A stretch of DNA of 64,000 bases, taken from positions 62,001 through 126,000 of the forward strand of contig NZ_FOQK01000003.1 of the NCBI RefSeq assembly GCF_900113715.1, given 5' to 3'. The notes below the pieces were generated by a model, which saw nothing but the letters and a program-made list of their open reading frames with translations, was not told the DNA's origin and searched no databases. The position numbers were made by a program, and so were the translations under genes. Origin of the DNA: Pseudoselenomonas ruminantium (lineage in GTDB: Bacteria > Bacillota > Negativicutes > Selenomonadales > Selenomonadaceae). Shown piece by piece: positions 204 to 55,226 of the stretch (position 1 is the stretch's first letter; each line of letters starts with the position of its first letter).

Positions 204-454
204 GCCATACCCCTCTTCCCATTCTCATAACTAACATCTTTGACAAGCATCCCGCTTGTCTTCAATATCATTTTACCTAAAACAGATGCGTATTGCAAGG
301 ATACAGGGCTATTTTATCAAAAAGCGCTTAATTTTTCTACAAAAGGACATGCGCCCCAAAATTCTCCATCATCTGTTTCCTCTCAAAAGACCATCTGTAA
401 ATTATATCTTGCCAACAGACAGCCCCTGTGATATGATTGTCATATATTGCAAAA

Positions 455-677
455 GGCAATGACTGAAAGAGTATCTGTCCATCTTCTCTCCAGAGAGGCG
501 GTGTTAGGTGTAAACCGCCGGGAGGACACAGAGAAAGCTGCTCACGAGCCTGCATGGCCCCATAAGCCCTGCCGTCAGCCGCGTTAAGGCATTGAGTGGA
601 TTCCTGCCGATTGCAGGATCCGATTAAGGTGGTACCACGGGAATAAGCCCTCGTCCTTTACAGGATGAGGGCTTTTA
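455..677 (+). promoter_or_regulatory. T-box riboswitch leader, possibly leucine-specific
   Basis: The leader has the main T-box parts in order. AGAGTA sits at 468-473. An AG-bulge and terminal-loop region (AGAGAGGCGG and onward) starts near 493. The T-box core AAGGTGGTACCACGG lies at 626-640, and a terminator hairpin (AGCCCTC/GAGGGCT) with a T run lies at 645-677. It precedes the Lrp-type regulator and the aminotransferase and should control both by tRNA charging. By register with known stem I structures the specifier looks like CTG at 538-540 (Leu). The UGGU in the T-box bulge fits a tRNA whose discriminator base is A, which agrees with Leu. The specifier call is tentative because I aligned it by eye. 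Confidence 0.85.
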
Positions 678-25280: not shown

Positions 25281-26075
25281 TCATTTTACCTCGAAGCCAT
25301 ATTTCTCGAATACCTTCTTGTTCGCGTCACTCGCAGCAAAGGCCAAAAACTCCTTTGCTGCCTCCATATGCTTGGCGTCCTTGAGGACGGCGGCCGGATA
25401 GATTATCGGCTTATGCGTATCTGCTGGTGCCTTGGCTGCGACCCGCACCTTATCCGATACCGCTGCATCGGTAGCATAGACCACACCGCACTCAGCCTCG
25501 CCCTTTTCAACCCAGGAAAGCACCTGGCGGACATCGGAACCATAGACAGCTTTCGCCTTCACAGCGTCAAGAATCCCGAGCTTCGTGAAGACTTCCTCCG
25601 AATACTGGCCTACCGGCACGCCCTTTGGTTCTCCCAAAGCGATGTGCTTGATGTCTGCCCCGGTGACCTGCGGGAAGGCTGTGATGTCCCTGCCACCCTC
25701 TTTGGGTACGACGAGCACCACCTCGTTCTGCAGCAGGTCGCGGCGCGTCCCTGCTGCCAGCAGGCCATCCTTTTCCAGCGCATCCATCTGCTTCTGCGCA
25801 GCCGAGAAGAACAAATCCGTCTCCCCGCCATTCTGGATTGCCTGCTGCAAAGCACCCGAACTGCCGAAATTGCAGACAATCCTGACATCCGGATGCTCTT
25901 TTTCATAACCTGCCACCAGCTCTTTCATGACATCGGTAAGGCTCGCTGCGGCTGCCACATGCAGCTCGACTTTCTCAGCCCCCGGAGATGACGCTTCTTT
26001 CGCTGCGGGCTGGCCGCCACAACCGGCCAGGACAGCCACCACCATCGCCATGATCACTACCAGAATCTTTTTCAT
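25281..26075 (-). CDS. modA: Molybdate-binding lipoprotein
   Basis: A 264-residue substrate-binding protein. The signal peptide ends in VLAGC, so the mature protein is a lipoprotein held in the periplasm. Family segments are VAAAASLTDVMKELV and NFGSSGALQQAI, whose serines bind the oxyanion in ModA. Molybdate is the likely ligand; tungstate cannot be excluded. Confidence 0.93.
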   Translation of the reverse strand: MKKILVVIMAMVVAVLAGCGGQPAAKEASSPGAEKVELHVAAAASLTDVMKELVAGYEKEHPDVRIVCNFGSSGALQQAIQNGGETDLFFSAAQKQMDALEKDGLLAAGTRRDLLQNEVVLVVPKEGGRDITAFPQVTGADIKHIALGEPKGVPVGQYSEEVFTKLGILDAVKAKAVYGSDVRQVLSWVEKGEAECGVVYATDAAVSDKVRVAAKAPADTHKPIIYPAAVLKDAKHMEAAKEFLAFAASDANKKVFEKYGFEVK

Positions 26076-26102
26076 CCGTTATTTTCCTCCTTTTCAAAAC
26101 GG

Positions 26103-26204
26103 AAGGGAGCGCGGTTTCCTGTGCTCCCCTGTGGGTATTACCCAGGCGCAGCATCATAGCGCATGACCTTAGATGCTTTTGCTCGGAGTTACGTTATCAT
26201 TATA
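26103..26204 (-). promoter_or_regulatory. Promoter and structured leader of modABC
   Basis: On the minus strand TATAAT lies at 26204-26199. The roughly 90-base leader contains three hairpins: GCGC...GCGC, TGGGTAATACCCA and GGGGAGC...GCGCTCCC with a GGAAACC loop. Such a compact folded leader in front of modABC could be a molybdenum-cofactor riboswitch. I could not match it base by base to the known consensus, so only the leader structure is claimed. Confidence 0.4.
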
Positions 26205-43076: not shown

Positions 43077-44234
43077 ATGAACCATATTCCTTTCCGCGTG
43101 AATGTCGCTCTGCTGAGCGCCGGACACTTCCTCAACGATTTCTATTGCAATTTCCTGCCCATCCTGCTGCCAGTCATCATCCCGCAGCTTGGTCTTTCGC
43201 TGACACTCAGCGGCTTATTGATCATGGTCATGTCCATCACCAGCAATCTCTTGCAGCCGGTCTTCGGCTACATCATGGACAAGCACGACTGGCGCCGGCT
43301 CTTGGTCCCCGTCCTGCCCTTCGGCGCCATCTGCATCTGCACGATAGGCTTCGTCACCAGCAAATCCATGCTGTTTTTCGTCATCGCCTTGACGGGCCTT
43401 TCCGTTTCTCTCTTCCATCCGCTCGGCTCGACCCTGGTCGCCAAGTCCAGCAGTCCGCAAAACCTCTCCAGTGACATGTCTTACTACATCGCTGGTGGCA
43501 ACATCGGCTTTGCGCTGGCCCCGCTGGCCCTCGTAGCCTTCACCGCTGTCTATCCGCTGACATCACTGCCCTGGCTGATCCTCCCCAGCATACTGCTGGC
43601 TGCCATCCTGTCCCAGAGCAAACTGCAGCAGTTCTCCACCATCCCTGCCCATAGCAGCAGCCAGCGGGCCCTGCGCCTTGGCGAAGTGCTTGCCAACCGG
43701 TCGGTAATCAAGCTCAATCTCGCCATGGGCCTTCGCTGCTGGACCCATACCTCGGTGTCCACCTTCCTGCCCTTGCTGCTGATCCACGCAGGGTACAGCT
43801 CCCTGCTGTCGGGCAGCCTGCTGACTTTGTTCCTGGTCGGCTGTACTGCCGGCGGCCTCGCTGGCGGCTGGCTCGGTAAGCGCTGTTCCCATAAGTCCAT
43901 CATCGTAGGCTCACTGCTGCTCGGCCTGCTGCCCACCTGGTATTTCTTCACGCACGCCGGCACAGAGCTGCTGTCCCTCGCAGCCTTGTTCTTCTCAGGC
44001 TTCTTCCTGCTCTCTCCCCAGCCCAGCTCCTTGGTCTGGGCCAACCACCTCATGCCGGCCAATGCGGGCATGGCAGCCGGCATGATGCTCGGACTTTCCT
44101 TCGGCCTTGGCAGCATCGGCACAGCCATCACCGCGGCACTGGCCGACTACATCGGCCTTTCCACCGCGCTGCTGCTGACCTCGCTGCCCCTGCTGCTCGC
44201 CGCATCCTTCGCCGCAGCAACACCAACAAAATAA
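43077..44234 (+). CDS. MFS transporter, fosmidomycin-resistance (Fsr) like
   Basis: A 385-residue membrane protein with about twelve hydrophobic segments. The start (LLSAGHFLNDFYCNFLPILL) and QPVFGYIMDKH match the Fsr group of the major facilitator superfamily, which exports fosmidomycin and other compounds. The ATG at 43077 follows GAGGTG. It converges with the pel operon; its stop codon lies within the shared hairpin at 44227-44272. Confidence 0.88.
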   Translation: MNHIPFRVNVALLSAGHFLNDFYCNFLPILLPVIIPQLGLSLTLSGLLIMVMSITSNLLQPVFGYIMDKHDWRRLLVPVLPFGAICICTIGFVTSKSMLFFVIALTGLSVSLFHPLGSTLVAKSSSPQNLSSDMSYYIAGGNIGFALAPLALVAFTAVYPLTSLPWLILPSILLAAILSQSKLQQFSTIPAHSSSQRALRLGEVLANRSVIKLNLAMGLRCWTHTSVSTFLPLLLIHAGYSSLLSGSLLTLFLVGCTAGGLAGGWLGKRCSHKSIIVGSLLLGLLPTWYFFTHAGTELLSLAALFFSGFFLLSPQPSSLVWANHLMPANAGMAAGMMLGLSFGLGSIGTAITAALADYIGLSTALLLTSLPLLLAASFAAATPTK

Positions 44235-44272
44235 AATGCCAGCAGGCTGAAGCCTGCTGGCATTTTATTTTG
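44227..44272. terminator. Bidirectional terminator of the pel operon and MFS gene
   Basis: A perfect 22-bp stem with a 2-base loop (arms 44227-44248 and 44251-44272). The core is GCCAGCAGGCT/AGCCTGCTGGC, and the outer ATTTTATTTTG gives a T-rich end in both directions. The stop codons of both convergent genes lie inside the arms. Confidence 0.95.
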
Positions 44273-45260
44273 CACTTCCCTCACGGAAATACTGATACAC
44301 ATCGATGACATCCAGGAAAGCTCCGTCAAAACCTGCCTGCATGATGGTATCCAAATAGGCCGTGGGGCTTCCGTAAAGGATTGCCTGCCACTCTTTCTGC
44401 CAGTATCTGACGCGATGGCTGCCCCAATCCTCATTCACCCCAGCCAACCATGTAGGAGGCTCTGCCTGCCATTTCGGCCGCCAATAGGCACGATATGGCT
44501 CGGCCTCGCCGACACTCATATAGGCATAGACGAGACGGCGGCCGCCCTGCGGCTTGCGCTGCAGCCGCAAGACCTCTGCCGCTGTCAGCGGGCGGTCCTC
44601 GCAATACAGATCAATGATCAGCAAGTCGTAGGGTGACTGTTCCAGCCGTGCAAAGTATTCTTCCCGCGCGTAGTTCCCAGGATTCAGCAGCACCAGGAAA
44701 TTGCGGACATCCCCCAGCCTCCGGATATCGCGGTCATTGATACCGGCTGGCTGTTCCTGCGGAATGGCATCAAGATTCCGCCGTGTGGATGCCCAGCTGA
44801 TATAGCCGCAGCGGTCGTTTTTCTGCCTTGAAGCTGCCTTCTGTGCCTCCGTCTGCACATAATCGATGTTGAAGACTGGCAGCCCCGCCTGCAGCGGGAC
44901 CTGCAGGGCCAGCTTGTAATAATCGCTGGTTTCCTTGCTTGTCTCCTCGCCATCCTTGAGGTCACTGCCGTAGAACACCGATTCCACCAGCTGCCCGTCA
45001 AGGCTCTGCAGCATCTTGCTGGCATTCTGCGGCGTATTGCCATCATACGGAAGGTATAATGGCGCTCCGCCATTAGCCAGCAGCCCGAATCCAGGCTTCC
45101 GGACCTGCACATAATCATGCAGGCTTCCCAGCAGGTCCACCATCGCCGTGTCATAAGCCACAGGCTCTGCCGCTTCGCTGCTTCCCAGCGCCGAGGATGC
45201 CGTGAGCAGCCCAAGCCCCAGAGCGATCTTGCGCAGTAACGCGCCCATTCTTCCAGCCAT
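44265..45260 (-). CDS. GH114-type glycosidase of the pel operon
   Basis: A 331-residue secreted protein of the TM1410/GH114 (endo-alpha-1,4-polygalactosaminidase) fold. It has a signal peptide (about 1-30, ending in SSEAA), then a TIM barrel with YDLLIIDLYCED, RLVYAYMSVGEAE and AGFDGAFLDVIDVY, whose acidic residues form the active site. It would cleave a galactosamine-rich polymer such as Pel in the periplasm or outside the cell, the role of the PelA hydrolase domain in Pseudomonas. The last gene of the operon, 15 bases behind the porin gene; the ATG follows AGGAG. Confidence 0.88.
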   Translation of the reverse strand: MAGRMGALLRKIALGLGLLTASSALGSSEAAEPVAYDTAMVDLLGSLHDYVQVRKPGFGLLANGGAPLYLPYDGNTPQNASKMLQSLDGQLVESVFYGSDLKDGEETSKETSDYYKLALQVPLQAGLPVFNIDYVQTEAQKAASRQKNDRCGYISWASTRRNLDAIPQEQPAGINDRDIRRLGDVRNFLVLLNPGNYAREEYFARLEQSPYDLLIIDLYCEDRPLTAAEVLRLQRKPQGGRRLVYAYMSVGEAEPYRAYWRPKWQAEPPTWLAGVNEDWGSHRVRYWQKEWQAILYGSPTAYLDTIMQAGFDGAFLDVIDVYQYFREGSAK

Positions 45261-45275
45261 TGTTTTTCTCCTGTA

Positions 45276-47519
45276 TCAGAACGTGTGATTATACATCAGG
45301 CTCATATTCCAGCCATGATAGGAATCCGTGTCATCGCCATCGATCGTGTAGGTTTCCAGCTTGGCTGCCAGTGCAGCCCGCTCATTGCAGCGATAATCAT
45401 AGCCCAGCAGCACCGACTTGCTGCGGCGGCCGTTTTCCTCCGTGCCTGTCCGCCAGTTATAGCTCTGGCCATTCGTCTCGCCATACCCCAGCAGGATATA
45501 AACCGCCTGCTGCCGGTCAAACTGGTGTCGCCAGCCCAGGCCGCCATAGTAGCGCCGCATGCTGCTCGCCGTCGTCCCTTCCTGGTAACTGCCGATCAGA
45601 TAATACTGCCAGGAGTCCCGTTCATCGATATCCTGATTGCCGTAGAGACGCAAAATCCAATCCTCGCCATCGTCATTGCGCCCGTCGAGAGCAATAGCCC
45701 TGTCATCCAGGACGTACTCCCTTCCCCTCTCCAAATATGAGTAGAGCTGCCTGCGATAGTACGAATGGCTGGCATTGATATGCGTCAGCTGGGCGGAGAA
45801 CTGGTCGTGTTCCCCGCTGTGCCGGTACGTCAGATCCTGTCGGAACTGATTGCTGGGATCGATGCGGTCTTCTGTTTCCACATCCTGCACCCGTGACAGG
45901 TCAATCCCCCGCGCTGCGGCATAGGCACGGACAGCATCGTAACTCAGATCCGCCGCCGACAGGCTTTTTGCCACACTGCTGTGATAGCTGTAATCGCCGC
46001 GGATGATATAGCTCAGCCGCCCGGTCAGGCTGTCGCGCCCGGTGATATGCCGGGTCACCTCGATGCCCGGCGTCACCTGCCAGCCTTCGCTGAACGAATT
46101 GTACCTGGCCAGCCCATCGGCCATCATCGCATTCTGATGCACATTGGAAACGCCTGTCGGCACATTGACCGTCAGCAGATAATGCACGTCGTATTGCCTA
46201 TGGTTGTTTCTCAGCACCATGCCCAGCGTGGTATCCGTCCAGCCGCGTACATGGCCTTTGCGAAGGCCTGTATCCGAATCGAGCCAGCCCGTGGACAGCG
46301 AGAAATCCCACTGCTTCTCCGCCGCATAGAAGCCGATTGGCTGATAGAGCTGGTAGCCACGCTGCCCAGCCCCGCGCCAGGTATAGTATTCGAAGCCCAG
46401 GCCAGCGCCCCATCCCTCACCGAAATGCGCCAGCGAATCATCCGCCTGCTGCTTCCACAGCTGCGTGTCCTGAAGAGCCTGGGACGCTTCTGCCACATAA
46501 GCCGCCGCTTCCTGGCTCCATTTGATGCCATCGGCCACATCCTGCTGCCGCTGCTGGATATCCGTCTGCGCGTCGTCCTGCTGCCCGGTAAGATCTGCCA
46601 CCCACTGCCGCGCATCGCGCTCCGCATCCTCAGCCGCCTCGCGCGCAGCCACGAGGGCATCGAGCTGCGCATCCAGCGCATCCAGTGCGGCTTCGCTTTC
46701 ATCGATGGCCGCATCCAGCTCCTGCAGCCGGGCTGCCAATGGTGCCAGCTCACCGCTGCGGTCGGCCACCATGCCCGATGCCTGCCTGGCCGCATTGACC
46801 TTGGCGATGACGTCATAGAGCCGGTTCTGTTCGTAGTTGACGCTCTGCCAGGCCTGCTCGATGATAGCTTCCAGATTTTCCTGCTGCTGCTCATACGTGC
46901 GCATCTGCTCCACTACTGCCGCATAATTCCCCTGTACCGTCTGGCGGTCTGCCAGCAGCTCGCTGACAATCGTCTGCTGCGCTGAAATGTGGGGCAGGAA
47001 ATCCGCAGCTGCCCGCTGGGCAGCCAAGGCCTCCTGCGTGCGGGCAGCGCTCTCGGCTTTTGCCCGTGACAATTCCTCGGTCACCCGCTGCAAGCGGCGT
47101 TCAGCTTCATCGAGCTCCTGCCGCGACGTCGCCAGTGCCGCCGCAGCATCCCGCTCAGACTGCCTTGCCTGCTGCAGAGCAGCTTCAGCCTGCACCAAGG
47201 CATCAGCGGCTTCACGCACATTGCGTTTGGCAGCTGCGAAATCACGGATGCGGTCACGTGAATCGCGCAGGGATTGCAGGGCCTCCGGCACCTCGGTGAA
47301 CGTATGGACGGAGGCCGCCTCAGCAGCCACTGCTGGCAGCAGGCCAAGCGAACCAAGCGAAACCGCCGCCGCTCCCTGCCGCAGGAATTCCTGCTGCTGC
47401 ATGTGCCGGCGGCGGCTGCGCGTCATGCGCATGGCCGACTGCTCACGCAAGCGCCTGGCGGCAGCCGCCGCTTCTTTCTGAGGCTGCAAGCGTTTACGCC
47501 CCTTGCGGCTAAGCCTCAT
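45276..47519 (-). CDS. Coiled-coil plus beta-barrel outer-membrane protein of the pel operon
   Basis: A 747-residue protein. Residues 1-45 are strongly basic, followed by a hydrophobic signal segment (GAAAVSLGSLGLLPAVA, about 49-65) and cleavage near AAEAA. Residues about 75-365 are Ala/Gln/Glu-rich with long heptad-like helices, so a periplasmic coiled coil. Residues about 375-747 alternate polar and aromatic residues in beta-strands and end in MYNHTF, the terminal Phe typical of barrels inserted by BamA. I infer that it is the outer-membrane exit for the Pel polymer, replacing PelB, whose periplasmic part is TPR repeats. The start overlaps the pelG stop in ATGA. The very long basic N-terminus is unusual for a signal peptide. 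Confidence 0.82.
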   Translation of the reverse strand: MRLSRKGRKRLQPQKEAAAAARRLREQSAMRMTRSRRRHMQQQEFLRQGAAAVSLGSLGLLPAVAAEAASVHTFTEVPEALQSLRDSRDRIRDFAAAKRNVREAADALVQAEAALQQARQSERDAAAALATSRQELDEAERRLQRVTEELSRAKAESAARTQEALAAQRAAADFLPHISAQQTIVSELLADRQTVQGNYAAVVEQMRTYEQQQENLEAIIEQAWQSVNYEQNRLYDVIAKVNAARQASGMVADRSGELAPLAARLQELDAAIDESEAALDALDAQLDALVAAREAAEDAERDARQWVADLTGQQDDAQTDIQQRQQDVADGIKWSQEAAAYVAEASQALQDTQLWKQQADDSLAHFGEGWGAGLGFEYYTWRGAGQRGYQLYQPIGFYAAEKQWDFSLSTGWLDSDTGLRKGHVRGWTDTTLGMVLRNNHRQYDVHYLLTVNVPTGVSNVHQNAMMADGLARYNSFSEGWQVTPGIEVTRHITGRDSLTGRLSYIIRGDYSYHSSVAKSLSAADLSYDAVRAYAAARGIDLSRVQDVETEDRIDPSNQFRQDLTYRHSGEHDQFSAQLTHINASHSYYRRQLYSYLERGREYVLDDRAIALDGRNDDGEDWILRLYGNQDIDERDSWQYYLIGSYQEGTTASSMRRYYGGLGWRHQFDRQQAVYILLGYGETNGQSYNWRTGTEENGRRSKSVLLGYDYRCNERAALAAKLETYTIDGDDTDSYHGWNMSLMYNHTF

Positions 47520-48997
47520 GGCTCCTCCCTCCTCTCTCGCTCCAAATCAACATACCGCTCCCCATACAAACGCATGGCCAGCCGGGTAAGCAGACCATGT
47601 GGCGGCTGATAGAAGACAGGCTGTGAGCAGAATACCAGATAGTTGATGCGGCTGGCAAAATGATCGAGCCGCCAGGCAGCGACCACAAAGCTTGCTGCCG
47701 CCGCCAGGAAAAAGGTGAACCCGTAGCTCTGCTCCCCCCACCAGCAAAGGCCCAAGACGCCCAGCACCAGATTGCTGGCCAAGAAGAACAATGACACCAT
47801 GAGCACATCCTTCTGATAGTCAAAATAGATCAGCAGAATGTAGATGAGCTGCAGCAGTCCCGTAAAGAAGGCACCGAACAGCAGGACATTGAACATGTTG
47901 ACCTGCTCATAGGTAATCCCCGCCCGCGACAGGATATAGCTGCCCAGCGCCAGGAACACCAGCGTGAACACCAGCTGCAGCTCTGCGGCATGCCGCAGCT
48001 CAAACCACAGGACATGCAACAGGTCCTTGCGCGCATCCTCGATCTGCCGGAAATTCCCCTTGCGCGTGATATGCGAGAAATAGACTGCATAACGCTGGTA
48101 AAAATTCGTCTCCACTGACACGACAAACACCATCATGAGCGGCAGGACTGACAGCAGCGCATAGAAGGTGACCACATCATAGACCGGCGAATAGCGGAAG
48201 GTTCCCGCCACTTCGACACCCCAAGGGCCAAACCAGATCAGGATATTGGGCAGGAACAGTCCGGCCGCATAGCTGGCAGCGATCACGAACAGCCGCCAAT
48301 GGCGCTCGAAATACGGCAAGAACGCAAAGTTCATGCCATCTTCCGGCAAGCCAAAGCAGGCAGCGATGTGCCACAGGAACAACAGGACACAAAGGGCCAT
48401 GCCCATATCGACGGCCAGCAGCGCAGACTGCTCGGCCGGCAGCCAGCCTGCCCCTAGCAGCTGCGCTGCCAGCATTATACTCACCACGACGCCAGCCAGA
48501 TAGCTCAGCAGCAACCGCTTGTATTTCTTGATGGCTGTCAGGTATACGCTTTCCACCCAGGAAATCAGCAGCAGGGCAAAGAACAGATATGCGAGCCACT
48601 TCGTCAACGATGCCAGCGGTCTGCCCCATAAGAAAGCCAGCGCCAGAAGCCCCCCGAGGGCAGATAGCAGCGCCGCACTGCCAAACAGTGAAGCCGTGAT
48701 ATCCTTGTAACGTGCCAGCGACAGGGAATCAGCCAGATAGCGCGTAAGCACCATCGTGAAGCCGCTCGACAAGATCTGCGAGAAAATGAACGCATACACC
48801 ACAGCCGCCACAAAGACCTGCACGGACTCCGCCGGCACGGCAAAGTGCCGGAACAGCAGCTGGACGGCCAGTACCATGCCCGTCAGCAAGGCAAAGGGCC
48901 CCGCCGTGATGATGGCCGAGTACGAATAAGCCCGGATATGACCAGCCGCCGTCCGGGCCGTAAAGAGTTTCTTCAGTTCGAAGCCGACGCCTGCCAT
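47516..48997 (-). CDS. pelG: PelG-like polysaccharide transporter
   Basis: A 493-residue inner-membrane protein with about twelve hydrophobic segments. It starts MAGVGFELKKLF, the characteristic PelG opening, and PelG belongs to the polysaccharide transporter (PST/MOP) group. In the Pel system it moves the growing polymer across the inner membrane with PelF, PelE and PelD. Its start overlaps the pelF stop by one base and its end overlaps the porin gene by four, so the genes are translationally coupled. Confidence 0.93.
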   Translation of the reverse strand: MAGVGFELKKLFTARTAAGHIRAYSYSAIITAGPFALLTGMVLAVQLLFRHFAVPAESVQVFVAAVVYAFIFSQILSSGFTMVLTRYLADSLSLARYKDITASLFGSAALLSALGGLLALAFLWGRPLASLTKWLAYLFFALLLISWVESVYLTAIKKYKRLLLSYLAGVVVSIMLAAQLLGAGWLPAEQSALLAVDMGMALCVLLFLWHIAACFGLPEDGMNFAFLPYFERHWRLFVIAASYAAGLFLPNILIWFGPWGVEVAGTFRYSPVYDVVTFYALLSVLPLMMVFVVSVETNFYQRYAVYFSHITRKGNFRQIEDARKDLLHVLWFELRHAAELQLVFTLVFLALGSYILSRAGITYEQVNMFNVLLFGAFFTGLLQLIYILLIYFDYQKDVLMVSLFFLASNLVLGVLGLCWWGEQSYGFTFFLAAAASFVVAAWRLDHFASRINYLVFCSQPVFYQPPHGLLTRLAMRLYGERYVDLERERREEP

Positions 48998-50424
48998 CAG
49001 CCCTTGACCTCCTTTGCCTGCGCGTATATCCTGCGATACGCTGCCAGGAAATGTTCATACGTGTAGCCGCGCTTGACGCGCTCGTAGCCGATGCTGCCCA
49101 TCTGCCGCCTGAGCGCAAAGTCACGGCCCAGCCGGACAATCTCCTTGGCCATGGCTTCAAAATCCATCGGGGCAACGATAGCCCCCGCCGCCCCGAGCGT
49201 ATCCGTACTGTCGCCATAGATGAGCTCACGGCAGCAGCCGACATCCGTCGTCACAAACGGCCGATGCGCCGCCTGCCCTTCCAGCACCGCCAGCGGCTGC
49301 CCCTCACTGATGCTCGAAAGGATCATAAGATCTATCTGCGGCAGATACTTGACGATATCCACCGACCCAGTAAATGTCACATCCTCAATCCGCAGCATGG
49401 CTACGGTCTGCTGGCATAAGGCATAATATTCGGGATCTTCATCGAAGCCGCCCATGATGACCAGCCGGGCTGCGGGAATCTCCTGCTTGACGAGGAAGAA
49501 GGCCCGCAGCAGCGTGACAATATCCTTGATGGGCACAACGCGGACAACAGCTCCGAGCGTAAGCGGCCCCTCATGGGGCTGCAGTTCAGGAATCTGCGCA
49601 AAACGCTCCATATGCACGCCATTCGGCACGATGCCGATCTTTGCCGGATCGCAGCCCAGGTCGCGCTCAATCTCGGCATTGTGCTCAAACAGCGTATAGA
49701 CATGATCGGCCACCCGGTAAGACAATCTGGCCAGATTGTAGAAATACTGGATCCAGACCGACTTGAAGTCGCCCTTGGCCCAATCGCTCTTGATGATCTC
49801 CACCTCGCGCTCACGCGAGTAGATGCCATGCTCCGTGATGATGAATGGCTTATGGTAGACCTCCGCTGCCATCGCACCGATCACCCCGCAGTAGCCCGTG
49901 GCGACACTGTGATAGACATCCGCTGCTGGCAAATCCTGCTGCAGCAGGAAGAACAGGGGCAGCAGCATCGAGCGCAGGGTCCAGAAGAAATCCGTGAAGG
50001 GCAGATACGGATAGTTCTCCTCGTATACCCGCTGGATCACATCGAAGAAATCGCTGCTCATGAAGATGTCCAGCGGGCTCTGGAACCGGCCGCGGTCACG
50101 GAAGATCACCGACAGCTCCTGGACGTTGATAGGCTTGCTGCCTGTCACCAGCTCGTAAAGCAGTTTCCGCTCAGCCGCGTTCAGGATATTCTCCCGCATT
50201 CCCTTTGACTTGAGGCTCAGGATATCATCGAGGAACTCCTCCTGCACGCCAACCACATTGGCCGGGAGCTTGTATTTGAAATCGCCGCGGTTCTTGGCCT
50301 CGGCCCCGATGGAGTAGATGAAGAACTCATGCTCCGGCAAGCCTTGTATAAGCATCTGGCACCAGGAAGATACACCGCCTACCACATAGGGATAGGACCC
50401 TTCCGTCAACAGGCAGATACGCAT
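48997..50424 (-). CDS. pelF: PelF-like glycosyltransferase, GT4 family
   Basis: A 475-residue cytoplasmic glycosyltransferase of GT-B fold. The N-terminal MRICLLTEGSYPYVVGGVSSW is the PelF start. The C-terminal nucleotide-sugar site has the E-x7-E motif in SEGQPLAVLE, near residue 372. PelF polymerises GalNAc/GlcNAc from UDP-sugars. Its start overlaps the stop of the DUF2194 gene by one base. Confidence 0.94.
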   Translation of the reverse strand: MRICLLTEGSYPYVVGGVSSWCQMLIQGLPEHEFFIYSIGAEAKNRGDFKYKLPANVVGVQEEFLDDILSLKSKGMRENILNAAERKLLYELVTGSKPINVQELSVIFRDRGRFQSPLDIFMSSDFFDVIQRVYEENYPYLPFTDFFWTLRSMLLPLFFLLQQDLPAADVYHSVATGYCGVIGAMAAEVYHKPFIITEHGIYSREREVEIIKSDWAKGDFKSVWIQYFYNLARLSYRVADHVYTLFEHNAEIERDLGCDPAKIGIVPNGVHMERFAQIPELQPHEGPLTLGAVVRVVPIKDIVTLLRAFFLVKQEIPAARLVIMGGFDEDPEYYALCQQTVAMLRIEDVTFTGSVDIVKYLPQIDLMILSSISEGQPLAVLEGQAAHRPFVTTDVGCCRELIYGDSTDTLGAAGAIVAPMDFEAMAKEIVRLGRDFALRRQMGSIGYERVKRGYTYEHFLAAYRRIYAQAKEVKG

Positions 50425-52247
50425 CAGTTCTCCTCCTTCCAGAATAATACCGCTTTGGCAGACTGCGTCTCAATCATATAGCAGTCCGTGCCAATGCGCG
50501 TGAACTCCGCCCCCTCCGCATGACCGATGGTCTTATCCGTATGCAGGATGAACCGCAGCGGATGACCAAAATCCCAGCAATGCAGCACCAGCCGGTCCGT
50601 GAGCCGCTGCACGCGGTAGTCCATGTCGAGATAATCATCCAGATAGGCTGCACACTCCGAATCCGTCACGGGGCGCAGCCAATCATAGCGCGCCTGCATC
50701 TCTGCCAAGAACGCCCGGAACCCCTTTTCCATCATTGCCCAGCTTTTATCCTGGCTCTCCACATAGAACATCTCATCGGGATGGACGAAATGGGAAAAAC
50801 AACCGATATAGTTGATGACACTGATCTGCTCATAGATGCTCTGCCGGCTCGGCATATAGCCGGCAGAAGTGCGCGGGATATCATAGGTGCCATCCCCCTG
50901 GCGGTCAAAATCCGTGATATACGCCTTATCGGGAGCTACACCATCAAACAGGGAGGAAAAGATCCGCACCTCGGGGAACACCTGCCGTATCGCCGCCTTG
51001 CCCTCAGGGCTCAGGATATCCGATGGCGGCACATAGGCCCGGATCTCATAACCGGGATAGGCATCCTCTACATAGCGCCGAAGCTCCTGCAGCGACTCAG
51101 CCATGGCCTGCTGGCTGGGCCAGGGCTGGTAATCAAGATTCCCCTGGTTATAGCCCGCTGGTGCCAGCGACTGATGGTTATAGCCGTGGATGCCCAGCTC
51201 GCCGCCCATGTCCAGCAGCTCCCGTCCGTAGATGATGAAATCATTGCGGATACGGCTGCCAGCCGGCGGCACAAAGGGCCCCTCGACCTGATTGCCATAC
51301 GACTCGATGATGAGCCCCGTATACTTCAGATTGAAATCCTTGGCTGCCTGCCGCATATACGGCCACCAACGCTGGCGATAGAAATCCTCCGTCGTCAGCT
51401 GCATTTCCGCATAGATCTTGGGATTGGTGCCCTCGGGGATCGGTGCAGGGAAATCATCGATGAAGACCAGCTTCGTCCCCAGGACGGGATAGATATCCTC
51501 CGCCCCGCAGTGGGCGATGACAGCCGTCAGCAGTCCCGCATTCGTCTTGTCGTCGCGCACACTGCCATTGTAGACCAGGTACTTCCCCTTGCCGGCCGCA
51601 TGCTCCCAGAGCAGCGGCTGGCCGTCTGCCGCACTGATATGCAGCGTGGCATCGCCGCTCAACTGCGCCTCGGTGCAGACCGTATCATAGACCGTCCCCT
51701 CGCCAAAGGAAGCCCCCTGGCCGCCAAACAGGAAATCCGTCCAGAGATGGATGCCACGGACTGTCTTGCCGCCGCCCAACCGCGCAACGCCCAGCTCCGC
51801 GAGCAAGTCCTGCGGCAGACTGCCGTCTGCCGCTTCCAGCCGCATCAGAACAGCTACGGTTCCACCTGCCGCCGCATACTGGCGCACCGCTGGCAGGCAG
51901 GCCACGCGCTCGAGGCTGCCTGACGCCAACAGGACACCACGGTAGCCGCCGTCAACGGCCGTATCATCCGCATAGATGGAGGCGATGTCGCAGTCCTTCT
52001 TCTGCTGCGCCAAGATCTTTGCCAACCGATGGCGGGCAAACACGCTGCCCACATCCCGCGGGTCATAGAGGATGAGATATCTGTCCCGCGCCTGTGCCAC
52101 CGCATCCCCCTGCTCCTCCATCGCTGGCAGCAGCGCCAGATTCCGCAGCGGTGACAGGTGCAGGAAGCCATCCATGCGGCTGAACTGGAAAAACACGCCC
52201 AGCACCATGACCAGGGCGAACACCAGCGCAATGCCCCGTTTATCCAT
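50424..52247 (-). CDS. DUF2194 protein, PelA deacetylase-like
   Basis: A 607-residue protein with one N-terminal membrane anchor (about 6-22) and a large extracytoplasmic part. Residues 55-245 are Rossmann-like. Residues 255-480 look like a CE4-type deacetylase, with Asp264/Asp265 in FIDDFP and His354/His358 in HGYNH. DUF2194 proteins occupy the place of the PelA deacetylase domain in Gram-positive pel operons. It likely deacetylates the polymer as it leaves the inner membrane. The start overlaps pelE by 8 bases, with AAGGAGG inside the pelE end. Confidence 0.87.
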   Translation of the reverse strand: MDKRGIALVFALVMVLGVFFQFSRMDGFLHLSPLRNLALLPAMEEQGDAVAQARDRYLILYDPRDVGSVFARHRLAKILAQQKKDCDIASIYADDTAVDGGYRGVLLASGSLERVACLPAVRQYAAAGGTVAVLMRLEAADGSLPQDLLAELGVARLGGGKTVRGIHLWTDFLFGGQGASFGEGTVYDTVCTEAQLSGDATLHISAADGQPLLWEHAAGKGKYLVYNGSVRDDKTNAGLLTAVIAHCGAEDIYPVLGTKLVFIDDFPAPIPEGTNPKIYAEMQLTTEDFYRQRWWPYMRQAAKDFNLKYTGLIIESYGNQVEGPFVPPAGSRIRNDFIIYGRELLDMGGELGIHGYNHQSLAPAGYNQGNLDYQPWPSQQAMAESLQELRRYVEDAYPGYEIRAYVPPSDILSPEGKAAIRQVFPEVRIFSSLFDGVAPDKAYITDFDRQGDGTYDIPRTSAGYMPSRQSIYEQISVINYIGCFSHFVHPDEMFYVESQDKSWAMMEKGFRAFLAEMQARYDWLRPVTDSECAAYLDDYLDMDYRVQRLTDRLVLHCWDFGHPLRFILHTDKTIGHAEGAEFTRIGTDCYMIETQSAKAVLFWKEEN

Positions 52248-53139
52248 TGCTGCGTACCTCCTTATCCCAAAAACGGATCACCTGCAGCGCCTTCTGCGAC
52301 AACTCCAGCGGCGAAGCCTTCAGCGCCTGGATTGCCCGCTGCAGGTCCTCCGGCCTGTGCTCCGCCTGGTAAAGCTCGATATACATGAGATACGATTCTT
52401 CCCGCGCAGGGAAACGCAGCATCATCTGCTCGCAGACCTGCTCCGCCGTGCGGAAATTGCGTATATCGAGGAGCTGCCCGATCTCCTCGCAGTAATAGCC
52501 GATATTGTCCGGCCGCAGCGCCAGCAGGCGATCCAGCAAGCCGATATAGTCCCCCTGCTTCTTGCGCCAGGTCACATGATCGATGAACTCCCGCTGCGAC
52601 AGGTATTCGCGCAGCATCTCCACGTATTCCTCGAGCAGCACCACATCTTCTTCCCGCTGGCCGGAAAGCACGGCACTCTCCTGCTCGAAAAGCTTCGTCT
52701 CAAGCTTTTCCATACGCGTCGTCAGCATCGATACCGCATAATAGGCAATCTCCCGGTCACGGTCATGCATGGCCATCTGCAGGATATTCTGGTTATCGAC
52801 GACCGACTGCTTGATGGCCTCCGTGAAGAAATGGCGCTTCTGCTGCACATCGCTGACCAGGAAGGCGTCATTGAGCGGGATGATATCACGATCCAATTCC
52901 GTGCCGCGGAAGAACGCCTCGCCCGCATCTTCCTGCTCCGGTACCCGCTCCCGATACAGATGCAGCAGCCGGCAGCCAAGCTTGAACAGCAGCAGGATGA
53001 CCAGCCCGCAGAATGGCAGGCAGAGCACCAGCACAGACTCCGCCAAGGCCCGCGGCAGGGAATGGGCCCGCCAGTCGAGCCAGAAGAACGCCGCTGTGAG
53101 CAGCAGATGGCACAGGACTGCCAACGAAAACATACTCAT
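52240..53139 (-). CDS. pelE: PelE-like TPR membrane protein
   Basis: A 299-residue protein with two N-terminal membrane segments (about 3-18 and 32-55) and a helical cytoplasmic domain with TPR-like repeats (ALRPDNIGYYCEEIGQLLDI and similar). This is the PelE layout; PelE bridges PelD, PelF and PelG in the inner-membrane complex. Its start overlaps the PelD stop in ATGA. Confidence 0.87.
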   Translation of the reverse strand: MSMFSLAVLCHLLLTAAFFWLDWRAHSLPRALAESVLVLCLPFCGLVILLLFKLGCRLLHLYRERVPEQEDAGEAFFRGTELDRDIIPLNDAFLVSDVQQKRHFFTEAIKQSVVDNQNILQMAMHDRDREIAYYAVSMLTTRMEKLETKLFEQESAVLSGQREEDVVLLEEYVEMLREYLSQREFIDHVTWRKKQGDYIGLLDRLLALRPDNIGYYCEEIGQLLDIRNFRTAEQVCEQMMLRFPAREESYLMYIELYQAEHRPEDLQRAIQALKASPLELSQKALQVIRFWDKEVRSNG

Positions 53140-55226
53140 ACTATCCCCTCATCGACCTGGGTCTGCAGCCCGCGCTTCTGTAAGCGGCGCTGGACCATCG
53201 CCGTCACCTCTTCATCTGCATCCGGCAGCAGCACATAGACGCGATCCGCCCGCAAGCCCACGAAGTCCTCATTGCGGATGGCGCCGGACAGCCGGCTGTC
53301 CAGCTCCTGGTAGTCCAGGCCTGTCATGTCCACCCGCAGCATGGCCAGCGGCAGATCTCCCTGCAGCTGGCGGCGCGCCTTGAGCTCCGCGATAATCTTG
53401 TCAAACTCCTTGGCCTGCAGGATACGGGTATTCCCCCAGTAGCGCCGCGCCTGGATTTCGCTCTCATACTGATAGGCTCGTCCCATCGACGACGATATCA
53501 GGCGCACCGTGATCGACAGCAGATTCTGCTGATGCAGGCTCCACTGCTCGAACCGCATGCCAAAGACTTCTACGACAGCAATGACCCTTCCCTGATGGAT
53601 GATGGGCGCCGCCATATCTGGCGCATCCGCCGCCAGTTCCCGATTGATATAGACCGCCTTCTCGTGTAGCACGGATTGCAGATAGCGGCAATCCGCCACG
53701 CGCAAAGAGCGCGGCAGCTGGTTTGCCAGCCGCCCCAGCCGTACCTTCTGCCGCAGATACCGCTGGTCATTGCCCACCACGTAGACGGCGATGTCCCGGA
53801 CATCCAGCACCTGCGCCGTGACAGCAGCCGCCTGAGTGAAGATATTCTCGGGCTCCACACTGTCAAGATTGCGGATGATCCGGTAGAGGCGTCCGATGCT
53901 GTCATCGGAATTCACGATCTGGTGGTACAGATGATTCTTGACCTCCATATTCTCATCGTATAGGCGCTTCAAGACAGCCAGCCTTTCCTCATGCTGGGCT
54001 GCCTGCCAATGGGCTGCCTCCCGTTCATACCTGCGGCTGTCAGCCACATAGCCGGTGAGTACCGCAACCAACAGATACGTGATCAGATGCAGGAGCATCG
54101 CCGGAACATAGAACAGCCCCACGAGCGTGCTGCCCTGATGCAGCATGGCGCCAAGCAGCAGCACCGACGACAGCGCCATCGCAAGCAGCGCCTGCTGCTT
54201 GCCATAGAGAAGCCCCATGGCACCGATATAGACAAAATTCATATCAAAGGGGACAATCGGATTCACCGGCTGCCCCTGCTGAAAGGCCATGACTGCCCCC
54301 ATCAAGGCAAAGCCAGCCAGGTTCTCTGCCAACGGGATGGCCCGCCGCAGCCTTTGCTGCCACTGCAGCCGCCTGCCAGTGTTTGCCAGCTCCCGCTGCT
54401 GGTCAGCGGCTGCTGCCTGCACATACTGCCAGGTGAGCTGCAAGCCTTCGGCCAGCGGATATTTCGGCCGCCAGCCCAGCTCGGATGCCGCTTTCTGCTC
54501 TGCCATGCCGCCCATCGCATAATCCTCCGCAGAATCTGCATCGATTGCCAGCGGACAAGCCTTCCCCGTTGCCTGGCGCACCAGCTGCGGCAGCTCTTCC
54601 CAGCGGACTGCCTCGCCCGCTGCCAGGCTGATGGTTCCGCCCGTGTAGCGGCGGGCAACGGCCCGGTAAAGCCCATATACCGCATCCTCGCGGTATAGGA
54701 ACGCCCGCTTCCCCGGCCGCCGGCTCGTCACCACCCCGCCCTGCGCCAGCGAATACAGCGCGCGGCTCAGGAAGCCATCCTGCTTGCGGCAGCCTGGGCC
54801 ATAGACCTCGGGCAGCCGCACGATAGCAAAGCCGCAGCCTGTGACGTCCGCCCAGCCACGCCCCATGCGTTCCGCCATGGCAGCCACCTCGCTCAAGGGG
54901 CGCTGCCCTTCAGCCAGTGGCTCGGCCAGCGTCGACGACACCAAATACACCTGCGTGACACCAGCCTGCCAGCCAGCCTGCAGGACATGCAGGAAATCCT
55001 GCAGCGCCTTGATGCCTGGCTCGCCAGTCAGAGCCACATCAAGCGCATAGACGAGCACAGGGATATTGTGAATCTTGATGACCTCTTCGGATGCTGGCTT
55101 ATCCGCCTCCCACACAAAGGTCTGCCAGCCCTCTTTCGTAAACACCTGCCGCAACTCCGTCTGCCAGAACAGTCCCTGACCGGCAAAAACGATCTTCTTG
55201 CGGATATCCTTGCGATCTGCCGCCAT
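53136..55226 (-). CDS. pelD: PelD-like c-di-GMP receptor with an SDR-like N-terminal domain
   Basis: A 696-residue fusion. Residues 10-275 resemble an extended SDR/epimerase but lack a clear GxxGxxG and the YxxxK pair, so it is probably not catalytic. About four membrane segments span 302-395, a linker helix follows, a GAF domain covers about 455-585 and a degenerate GGDEF domain about 600-690. RNED at 651-654 matches the RxxD inhibitory site of diguanylate cyclases, while the GGDEF position reads ADRVY (660-664), as expected for a PelD-type receptor without cyclase activity. It should switch on Pel synthesis when c-di-GMP is bound. First pel gene, 43 bases behind holA; ATG behind GAGGGGG. 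Confidence 0.9.
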   Translation of the reverse strand: MAADRKDIRKKIVFAGQGLFWQTELRQVFTKEGWQTFVWEADKPASEEVIKIHNIPVLVYALDVALTGEPGIKALQDFLHVLQAGWQAGVTQVYLVSSTLAEPLAEGQRPLSEVAAMAERMGRGWADVTGCGFAIVRLPEVYGPGCRKQDGFLSRALYSLAQGGVVTSRRPGKRAFLYREDAVYGLYRAVARRYTGGTISLAAGEAVRWEELPQLVRQATGKACPLAIDADSAEDYAMGGMAEQKAASELGWRPKYPLAEGLQLTWQYVQAAAADQQRELANTGRRLQWQQRLRRAIPLAENLAGFALMGAVMAFQQGQPVNPIVPFDMNFVYIGAMGLLYGKQQALLAMALSSVLLLGAMLHQGSTLVGLFYVPAMLLHLITYLLVAVLTGYVADSRRYEREAAHWQAAQHEERLAVLKRLYDENMEVKNHLYHQIVNSDDSIGRLYRIIRNLDSVEPENIFTQAAAVTAQVLDVRDIAVYVVGNDQRYLRQKVRLGRLANQLPRSLRVADCRYLQSVLHEKAVYINRELAADAPDMAAPIIHQGRVIAVVEVFGMRFEQWSLHQQNLLSITVRLISSSMGRAYQYESEIQARRYWGNTRILQAKEFDKIIAELKARRQLQGDLPLAMLRVDMTGLDYQELDSRLSGAIRNEDFVGLRADRVYVLLPDADEEVTAMVQRRLQKRGLQTQVDEGIV

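What the first reader, a model, noticed from the sequence alone, without database searches (positions are those of the whole stretch)
44265..55226. Complete Pel-type exopolysaccharide operon in a diderm Firmicute
Seven genes, all overlapping or within 15 bases, encode PelD, PelE, a DUF2194 PelA-deacetylase-like protein, PelF, PelG, an outer-membrane protein and a GH114 glycosidase. In Pseudomonas the system is pelABCDEFG; in Bacillus the operon has the form pelDEA(DA)FG without outer-membrane parts. This one has the Gram-positive order for the inner part plus its own outer-membrane exit, and lacks PelB and PelC. It would be a third architecture, fitted to an outer membrane in a Firmicute lineage.
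Basis: partly seen in the sequence, partly recalled or inferred. Interest (0 to 1): 0.85.

Follow-up and report, generated by a model that had tools for sequence, protein, structure and literature searches.

The report
Pel biofilm operon with own exporter
A Selenomonas-like bacterium, a Firmicute with an outer membrane, carries the Gram-positive version of the Pel biofilm-sugar operon with an added outer-membrane barrel on a long coiled-coil stalk, which looks like a separate solution to getting biofilm sugar out of a two-membrane cell.

Summary
Seven minus-strand genes (55226 to 44265) overlap or lie within 15 bases and end at a terminator-like hairpin. They encode PelD, PelE, the deacetylase PelADA (DUF2194), PelF, PelG, an outer-membrane protein (OMP) and a glycosidase. 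The PelG belongs to one Negativicutes clade among Gram-positive-type PelGs. After pelG, 44 of 56 non-Negativicutes loci have a CotH-like gene (next or fused); 19 of 21 Negativicutes loci with pelG have the OMP. Of 300 genomes of the class, all 47 with PelG also have the OMP, directly downstream in 43. AlphaFold predicts about 290 residues of long helices, then an outer-membrane barrel. PelC was not found in the genome; the PelB test failed its control. Of 12 OMP copies examined away from pel, seven lie in clusters with three other exopolysaccharide synthase types (PgaC/BcsB-like, CelA/MBOAT-like, another GT2); five have no recognised synthase beside them. This points to a Negativicutes exporter family in which a coiled coil replaces the TPR part of PelB, BcsC and PgaA. 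The glycosidase is a circularly permuted GH191-like protein keeping both catalytic residues. Export itself is inferred. Verdict: a real third Pel architecture, found across several families of the class.

The parts
53136..55226 (-). pelD: degenerate SDR domain, membrane part, GAF, degenerate GGDEF with RxxD inhibitory-site motif (R651, D654; DNA about 53265-53276)
   Evidence: (R651 and D654 invariant in 18 of 18 rows)
52240..53139 (-). pelE: membrane protein with weak TPR-like C-terminus
   Evidence: (TPR_19 at 0.088 only)
50424..52247 (-). pelA-DA (DUF2194): membrane-anchored polysaccharide deacetylase
   Evidence: catalytic motifs D264 D265, H354 and H358, R459, H486 and H489 in 99-100% of 72 rows
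48997..50424 (-). pelF: GT4 Pel polymerase
47516..48997 (-). pelG: membrane exporter subunit
45276..47519 (-). OMP: Arg-rich leader (residues 1 to about 49), signal peptide, helices 73-226 and 255-364 (DNA about 47303-46428), barrel 369-746 (DNA about 46415-45282)
   Evidence: start codon overlaps the pelG stop
44265..45260 (-). circularly permuted GH191-like endo-galactosaminidase with an N-terminal signal-like stretch, catalytic pair E93 and D317
44227..44272 (-). intrinsic-terminator-like hairpin, 20 pairs, at the last stop codon
55270..56316 (-). upstream ORF 43 bases before pelD (looks like holA; name recalled, no call), possibly co-transcribed; promoter-like site 56399-56371
   Evidence: ORFs of 347-352 aa precede pelD in eight relatives

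Best explanation
This is a c-di-GMP-controlled Pel-type exopolysaccharide synthase of the Gram-positive kind (pelDEA-DA-FG), fitted to a two-membrane cell. Likely mechanism: PelD binds c-di-GMP at its conserved RxxD site and switches on the PelDEFG complex. PelF polymerises GalNAc and PelG moves the chain across the inner membrane. The membrane-anchored PelADA partly deacetylates it in the periplasm. The chain leaves through the barrel of the OMP, whose coiled-coil stalk (up to about 23 nm if helix 73-226 is one straight rod; my arithmetic) reaches down to the inner-membrane complex in place of PelB's TPR superhelix and PelC. The permuted GH191-like enzyme trims or clears Pel in the periplasm or outside. 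Shown here: gene content, order, domain homology, catalytic and ligand motifs, co-occurrence, no PelC found, predicted fold. Inferred: activity, product chemistry, c-di-GMP binding, pore function, stalk contacts.
For: Family matches for PelF, PelG, PelADA and the glycosidase. PelD model: top eight Foldseek matches are PelD; RxxD in 18 of 18 rows; 20 GGDEF matches in the genome. The OMP is directly after PelG in 43 of 47 PelG genomes and present in 47 of 47. 13 of those 47 gave rows to the OMP model, so for them the match is by construction; the other 34 of 34 match too. Non-Negativicutes loci hold CotH in that slot in 44 of 56. In a phylum sample of 299, no match outside Negativicutes covers the barrel. 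Of 12 OMP copies fetched away from pel, seven (L122-L128) lie in same-strand clusters with other exopolysaccharide synthases. AlphaFold barrel, mean pLDDT 81; VIA matches include PelB of PelBC (9h80, Z 17.2, rmsd 3.8, 254 aligned) and AlgE (5iyu, Z 17.9, rmsd 4.0, 294 aligned). PelC not found, with a working control. pelG stop and OMP start overlap. In print: S. sputigena, which forms biofilm, has PelF and PelG homologues, and the non-biofilm strain ATCC 33150 lacks them, though it lacks other polysaccharide genes too and aggregates strongly (PMC13339959, passages).
Against: No experiment on this organism. The barrel fold is generic: porins, FhaC and CdiB score as high or higher, and hhalign finds no link to PelB (probability 0.3%). 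Five of the 12 OMP copies away from pel have no recognised synthase beside them: L129 (G259), L130 (G037), L131 (G225, a 4.8 kb contig), and L132 (G024) and L133 (G271) in genomes that do have PelG, on other contigs (only L129 and L131 had a neighbour scanned with Pfam). In G034 OMP and PelG are 5.5 kb apart. The PelB model failed its held-out control, so a distant PelB elsewhere is not excluded. VIA does not separate the PelD GAF from other GAF domains.
Confidence: 0.78

Rival explanations
1. The OMP is a general porin or an OmpM-like outer-membrane tether that happens to be co-transcribed with pel, and Pel leaves by another route.
For: The fold is a generic barrel; Veillonella OmpM1 (8bys) scores Z 17.2 (rmsd 3.9, 250 aligned), tied with PelB. 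Five of 12 OMP copies away from pel have no recognised synthase beside them (L129-L133).
Against: No SLH domain found. One copy in the own genome. Present in 47 of 47 PelG genomes and 11 of 253 others. Seven of 12 copies away from pel lie with other polysaccharide synthases. OmpM is a tether and nutrient channel (PMC10628300, title and abstract start in the search listing).
Confidence: 0.15
2. The operon makes a different polymer (another amino-sugar polysaccharide), so it is Pel-like in machinery only.
For: Product not determinable from sequence. The authors of the operon survey warn that divergent pel operons may make other polymers (PMC7112194, passages).
Against: PelADA catalytic motifs intact. 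The glycosidase keeps the Asp/Glu pair of a group acting on galactosamine polymers, although TmGH191 itself, its closest solved relative, showed no activity in that paper's tests.
Confidence: 0.2
3. PelB-like export exists elsewhere in the genome and the OMP is an auxiliary surface protein.
For: The PelB model could not be validated.
Against: PelC not found. The three-row PelB model gave at best 0.102 (G045) in four Negativicutes genomes (weak, because the control failed).
Confidence: 0.05

Closest known systems
Gram-positive pelDEADAFG operon (Bacillus cereus ATCC 10987; PMC7112168, passages)
   Same: Genes, order, separate PelADA; N-terminal SDR on PelD as the paper reports for Brevibacillus, streptococci, clostridia and actinobacteria
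   Different: OMP plus GH191-like gene directly after pelG, where the paper reports CotH, poly-phosphate polymerase and DUF4956 genes in streptococci and clostridia and where 44 of 56 non-Negativicutes loci here have CotH; SDR cofactor motif degenerate
Pseudomonas pelABCDEFG with PelBC export (9h80)
   Same: PelD, E, F, G; deacetylase and hydrolase functions; an outer-membrane barrel joined to a long alpha-helical periplasmic part
   Different: No PelC found; no TPR; hydrolase and deacetylase are separate proteins; gene order; no detectable sequence link OMP-PelB
TPR-barrel exopolysaccharide exporters BcsC, PgaA, PelB
   Same: Helical periplasmic part plus C-terminal barrel, encoded beside a synthase
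   Different: Coiled coil in place of TPR; one family beside several synthase types in one class
OmpM of Negativicutes (8bys)
   Same: Barrel of similar fold; coiled-coil stalk (of OmpM: recalled)
   Different: No SLH domain; operon-linked to synthases
GH191 / GH114 / PelAh endo-galactosaminidases (TmGH191, 9ep5, 5tcb)
   Same: Fold halves and catalytic Asp and Glu
   Different: The two halves are in swapped order in the chain
Fusobacteriota pel loci (Propionigenium L121, Cetobacterium L145)
   Same: DUF2194-type pel, permuted glycosidase, a further secreted-looking protein after PelG
   Different: That protein (305-328 aa, not modelled) is unrelated to the OMP by profile; glycosidase comes first; PelD short; PelG extended

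Membership tests
Gram-positive-type pel (pelDEADAFG) | PelF GT4 and PelG present, adjacent | tested here: met
Gram-positive-type pel (pelDEADAFG) | PelADA without fused hydrolase | tested here: met
Gram-positive-type pel (pelDEADAFG) | Gene order D-E-ADA-F-G | tested here: met
Gram-positive-type pel (pelDEADAFG) | PelD GAF plus degenerate GGDEF with RxxD | tested here: met
   (motif and fold; binding not tested)
Gram-positive-type pel (pelDEADAFG) | Makes a GalNAc-rich polymer | not testable with these tools
   needs chemistry
Pseudomonas-type pelABCDEFG | PelC lipoprotein | tested here: not met
   none at E <= 1 in the own genome; held-out control 2.9e-37 (G051 gives a partial 0.035)
Pseudomonas-type pelABCDEFG | PelB TPR-barrel protein | tested here: inconclusive
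   not in the operon; the genome search with a three-row model missed its control
Pseudomonas-type pelABCDEFG | Bifunctional hydrolase-deacetylase PelA | tested here: not met
   separate genes
TPR-barrel exopolysaccharide exporter | Outer-membrane beta-barrel | tested here: met
   (prediction)
TPR-barrel exopolysaccharide exporter | TPR repeats | tested here: not met
   no TPR in Pfam scan at E <= 1; long helices in model
TPR-barrel exopolysaccharide exporter | Conducts polysaccharide | not testable with these tools
   needs experiment
OmpM | SLH domain | tested here: not met
GH191/GH114 | Catalytic Asp and Glu | tested here: met
   D317 and E93 invariant in 16 of 16 rows
GH191/GH114 | Chain order of the barrel as in TM1410 | tested here: not met
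   swapped order against TM1410 and 9ep5, and weakly against PelA 5tcb

The most novel reading that the evidence does not exclude
Negativicutes own a separate family of exopolysaccharide secretion channels, coiled coil plus barrel, shared by at least four synthase types (Pel, PgaC/BcsB-like, CelA/MBOAT-like and another GT2), which replaces both the TPR scaffold and the PelC-like helper. It would be an independent answer to moving a charged polymer across two membranes in a lineage whose relatives have one membrane.
Probability: 0.6. Interest if true: 0.78.

Novelty: new variant of a known kind. Interest (0 to 1): 0.67.

Why it matters
Pel is a widely studied biofilm matrix polymer, and the described outer-membrane exit for it is the PelBC route (recalled, and PMC7112168 passages). 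A Firmicute operon with the Gram-positive core and an unrelated exit channel would show that the core is portable and that the exit can be rebuilt. It gives a testable case of how a single-membrane type of system was fitted to, or kept in, a two-membrane cell. The same channel family beside three other synthase types makes a shared export rule in Negativicutes testable with one mutant set. The permuted GH191-like enzyme adds a new chain order to a group of enzymes that degrade galactosamine polymers.

Tried and rejected
PF16963 (PelD_GGDEF) gave nothing in the genome, but all 14 controls were silent too, so it says nothing. phmmer and profile searches of PelD against PDB sequences were swamped by SDR folds, and the C-terminal profile found nothing; the structure route then worked, though VIA ties PelD with other GAF domains. 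OMP profile against PDB sequences: only coiled-coil matches, best 0.0022. PelE against PDB: one TPR-region match at 0.0004 and weaker ones, not used. PelB genome search: model failed its control. GH114 naming by Pfam was dropped in favour of GH191-like. Rfam finds no known RNA family before the operon.

Literature searches: (7 papers). None of the listings shows this architecture or an OMP exporter in Negativicutes. Only open-licence PMC papers are held, so this is not proof of novelty. Papers were seen as passages or as listings; no whole text and no supplements.

Rows dropped before counts: the tree used 37 OMP rows chosen by hand. The tree used 59 PelG rows, after leaving out partial or redundant Negativicutes rows (L047, L049, L058, L062, short ones) and 21 others for thinning; rows were cut to at most 500 residues. 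One search used one place per genome for the 47 PelG genomes (second partial pieces of G035 and G300 left out); G266, a partial hit overlapping by 7 bases, was left among the four non-adjacent ones. In one search, 3 of 24 Negativicutes loci had no PelG call and were set aside. The OMP search scored at most three candidates per genome, so copies may be missed. The Fisher value (1e-44) ignores relatedness.
Full report
1. What is there. The seven genes are real and form one compact minus-strand operon. The pelG stop overlaps the OMP start (ATGA) after a purine-rich stretch that looks like a ribosome-binding site. A 20-pair terminator-like hairpin lies right at the last stop codon (44272-44227). 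Of four promoter-like matches with 10 of 12 bases on this strand, one lies outside the genes, upstream of the preceding ORF (56399-56371), so that ORF, 43 bases before pelD, may be in the same transcript (inference; consensus matches are weak evidence). The window belongs to a 3.11 Mb genome in 52 contigs; its nearest named PelG is that of Selenomonas ruminantium GACV-9 (81%).

2. The inner-membrane part. PelG, PelF and DUF2194 are unambiguous. The DUF2194 protein matches the solved B. cereus PelADA (9zau, 2.7e-68; identity of the entry). Its motifs DD (264, 265), HxxxH (354 to 358), R459 and the H486/H489 site are kept in 99-100% of 72 rows. I matched these to the residues named in PMC13254593 (passages) by motif, not by an alignment to the B. 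cereus chain. PelD has an SDR domain with a degenerate cofactor motif (the Paenibacillus, Brevibacillus and Clostridiaceae rows keep GGYGFIGS), a membrane part, GAF, and a degenerate GGDEF that keeps RxxD in 18 of 18 rows. A model of the last 302 residues (pLDDT 78.9) finds P. aeruginosa PelD chains as its top eight Foldseek matches; VIA ranks 4dmz third (Z 13.9, rmsd 2.3, 132 aligned), tied with other GAF domains. The genome has 20 GGDEF matches over the cut-off, so c-di-GMP signalling is likely.

3. The outer-membrane protein. It reaches no curated cut-off in Pfam or NCBIfam (the coiled coil gives weak matches to other coiled-coil models). AlphaFold with 19 rows (pLDDT 81.2, pTM 0.61) gives helices 73-226 and 255-364 and then 22 strand segments between 369 and 746, some of them pieces of one strand. 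Foldseek and VIA match many outer-membrane barrels. The highest are CdiB and FhaC (Z 19 to 21); PelB of PelBC (9h80, Z 17.2, rmsd 3.8, 254 aligned, 13% identity), AlgE and OmpM1 are among them. The fold alone therefore says 'barrel', not 'Pel channel'. Profile comparison with three PelB rows finds nothing.

4. Conservation and co-occurrence. Among 300 genomes of the class, 47 have PelG and 58 match the OMP model; all 47 PelG genomes, from seven families, are among the 58. 13 of the 47 supplied rows for the model; the other 34 also match. In 43 of 47 the OMP follows PelG on the same strand. The exceptions are G266 (partial hits, edge overlap), G034 (5.5 kb away), and G024 and G271 (other contigs). 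The 11 OMP-positive, PelG-negative genomes are G037, G058, G081, G083, G085, G094, G122, G174, G225, G228 and G259; G058 and G122 match only in the coiled-coil part. Nine of the 11 were searched for DUF2194 and none has it. In a phylum sample of 299 genomes the model matches 12: four Negativicutes in full, and eight others at 38 bits or less, none reaching beyond model position 363 of 706, so none covers the barrel. In the own genome the OMP is single-copy.

5. The slot. Of 80 named loci (the best 80 of 558, PelG-seeded), 24 are Negativicutes and 21 of these have a PelG call: the OMP is next in 19, the glycosidase in two (L044, L051). Of 56 other loci, 26 have a CotH-like gene next and 18 have CotH fused to PelG; 12 have something else (seeded with the L116 protein; CotH confirmed by Pfam for L116 only). 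CotH accessory genes after pelG are known from streptococci, clostridia and bifidobacteria (PMC7112168, passages). PelG of Negativicutes forms one clade, 100/100 (59 rows). So a core of Gram-positive type carries a different last module in the two-membrane lineage.

6. The exporter is shared with other polymers. I fetched 12 OMP copies that do not lie beside pelG. Seven (L122 to L128, six genomes) lie in same-strand synthase clusters: GT2 like PgaC with BcsB and DUF2334 (L122, L124); CelA-like GT2 with PilZ, and MBOAT (L126, L128); another GT2 with a weak polysaccharide-deacetylase match (L123, L125, L127). Pfam was run on L122, L123, L125 and L126 members; L124, L127 and L128, and the GT2 of L125, are assigned by BLAST likeness. 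The other five (L129, L130, L131, and L132 and L133 from pel-positive genomes) have no recognised synthase beside them in the stretch fetched; of their neighbours only one each of L129 (a chemoreceptor) and L131 (no family) was scanned. On the OMP tree (37 rows) pel-linked and other copies are interleaved: starred branches force at least four label changes, but the 'other' label includes the five stand-alone copies, so not all are changes of partner. The clearest case: the pel OMPs of three other families (L022, L023, L026) group with the PgaC/BcsB and CelA/MBOAT copies (97/98). Some branches are long, so the exact joins are unsure. This reuse is the best evidence that the protein is an export channel and not a pel-only accessory; the stand-alone copies speak somewhat against it.

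7. PelB and PelC. A three-row PelC model found the held-out Pseudoalteromonas PelC at 2.9e-37 and nothing at E <= 1 in the own genome. The PelB model missed its held-out control, so its silence in the own genome is inconclusive. Canonical loci used: Azonexus, Caballeronia and Paraburkholderia plasmids for the models, Pseudoalteromonas as control; a Cereibacter locus was fetched and not used.

8. The glycosidase. Against TM1410 and 9ep5 the profile matches in two blocks in swapped order: profile positions 205/248-331 pair with the N-terminal half, and 32/35-169 with the C-terminal half; the same, weakly, against P. aeruginosa PelA hydrolase 5tcb. TmGH191's Asp156 and Glu225 (PMC12054363, passages) fall on D317 and E93 (my count along the alignment), both invariant in 16 of 16 rows. 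The paper reports no activity for TmGH191 itself, but activity for Env-GH191, and its main text has no word beginning 'permut'. Fusobacterial pel loci share the permuted order.

9. In print. PelF and PelG homologues are reported in biofilm-forming S. sputigena and are absent from a non-biofilm strain that differs in other polysaccharide genes too (PMC13339959, passages). A Fusobacterium operon with pelG is mentioned in PMC12826042 (passages). My searches (listed under Tried and rejected) found no description of this architecture or channel family.

10. Verdict. A new variant of a known kind: a Pel system with the Gram-positive core and a Negativicutes-type exit channel. The step 'polymer leaves through this barrel' is inferred from anatomy, linkage and reuse beside other synthases.

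Noticed in passing
window 47519-47373; also L043, L046, L048, L057, L129, L133: Before the signal peptide the OMP carries an Arg-rich leader with R-M/L/F-S/T-R motifs (one to four copies) in 17 of 37 copies scanned; not seen in L022, L023, L026 or the synthase-linked L122-L128. Function unknown.
   Followed up: partly
L026:9171-12578: PelG and the OMP read as a single ORF of 1135 aa in one genome (G046), with a signal-like stretch and an AGGAGG at the junction. Other PelGs are fused to CotH (18 of 56 loci) or to Y/D/G-rich repeats (L121).
   Followed up: partly
L121:3540-13709, L145:5193-14427: Fusobacteriota carry GH191-like, PelD, DUF2194, PelE, PelF, PelG, then a 305-328 aa protein that looks barrel-like to the eye (not modelled), unrelated to the OMP by profile.
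   Followed up: partly
L032:6073-9657: One OMP has a large extra stretch (several hundred residues) inside the barrel part, perhaps an extracellular loop domain.
   Followed up: no
L038 / L044: A rearranged pel locus with two DUF2194 genes and the OMP at the far end.
   Followed up: no
window 26071-26200 (-) and 450-661 (+): Moco (molybdenum/tungsten) riboswitch and a T-box leader above Rfam gathering scores.
   Followed up: no
L122-L128: GT2/BcsB/DUF2334, GT2/deacetylase-like and CelA-PilZ/MBOAT synthase clusters in other Negativicutes, each with a relative of the OMP.
   Followed up: partly
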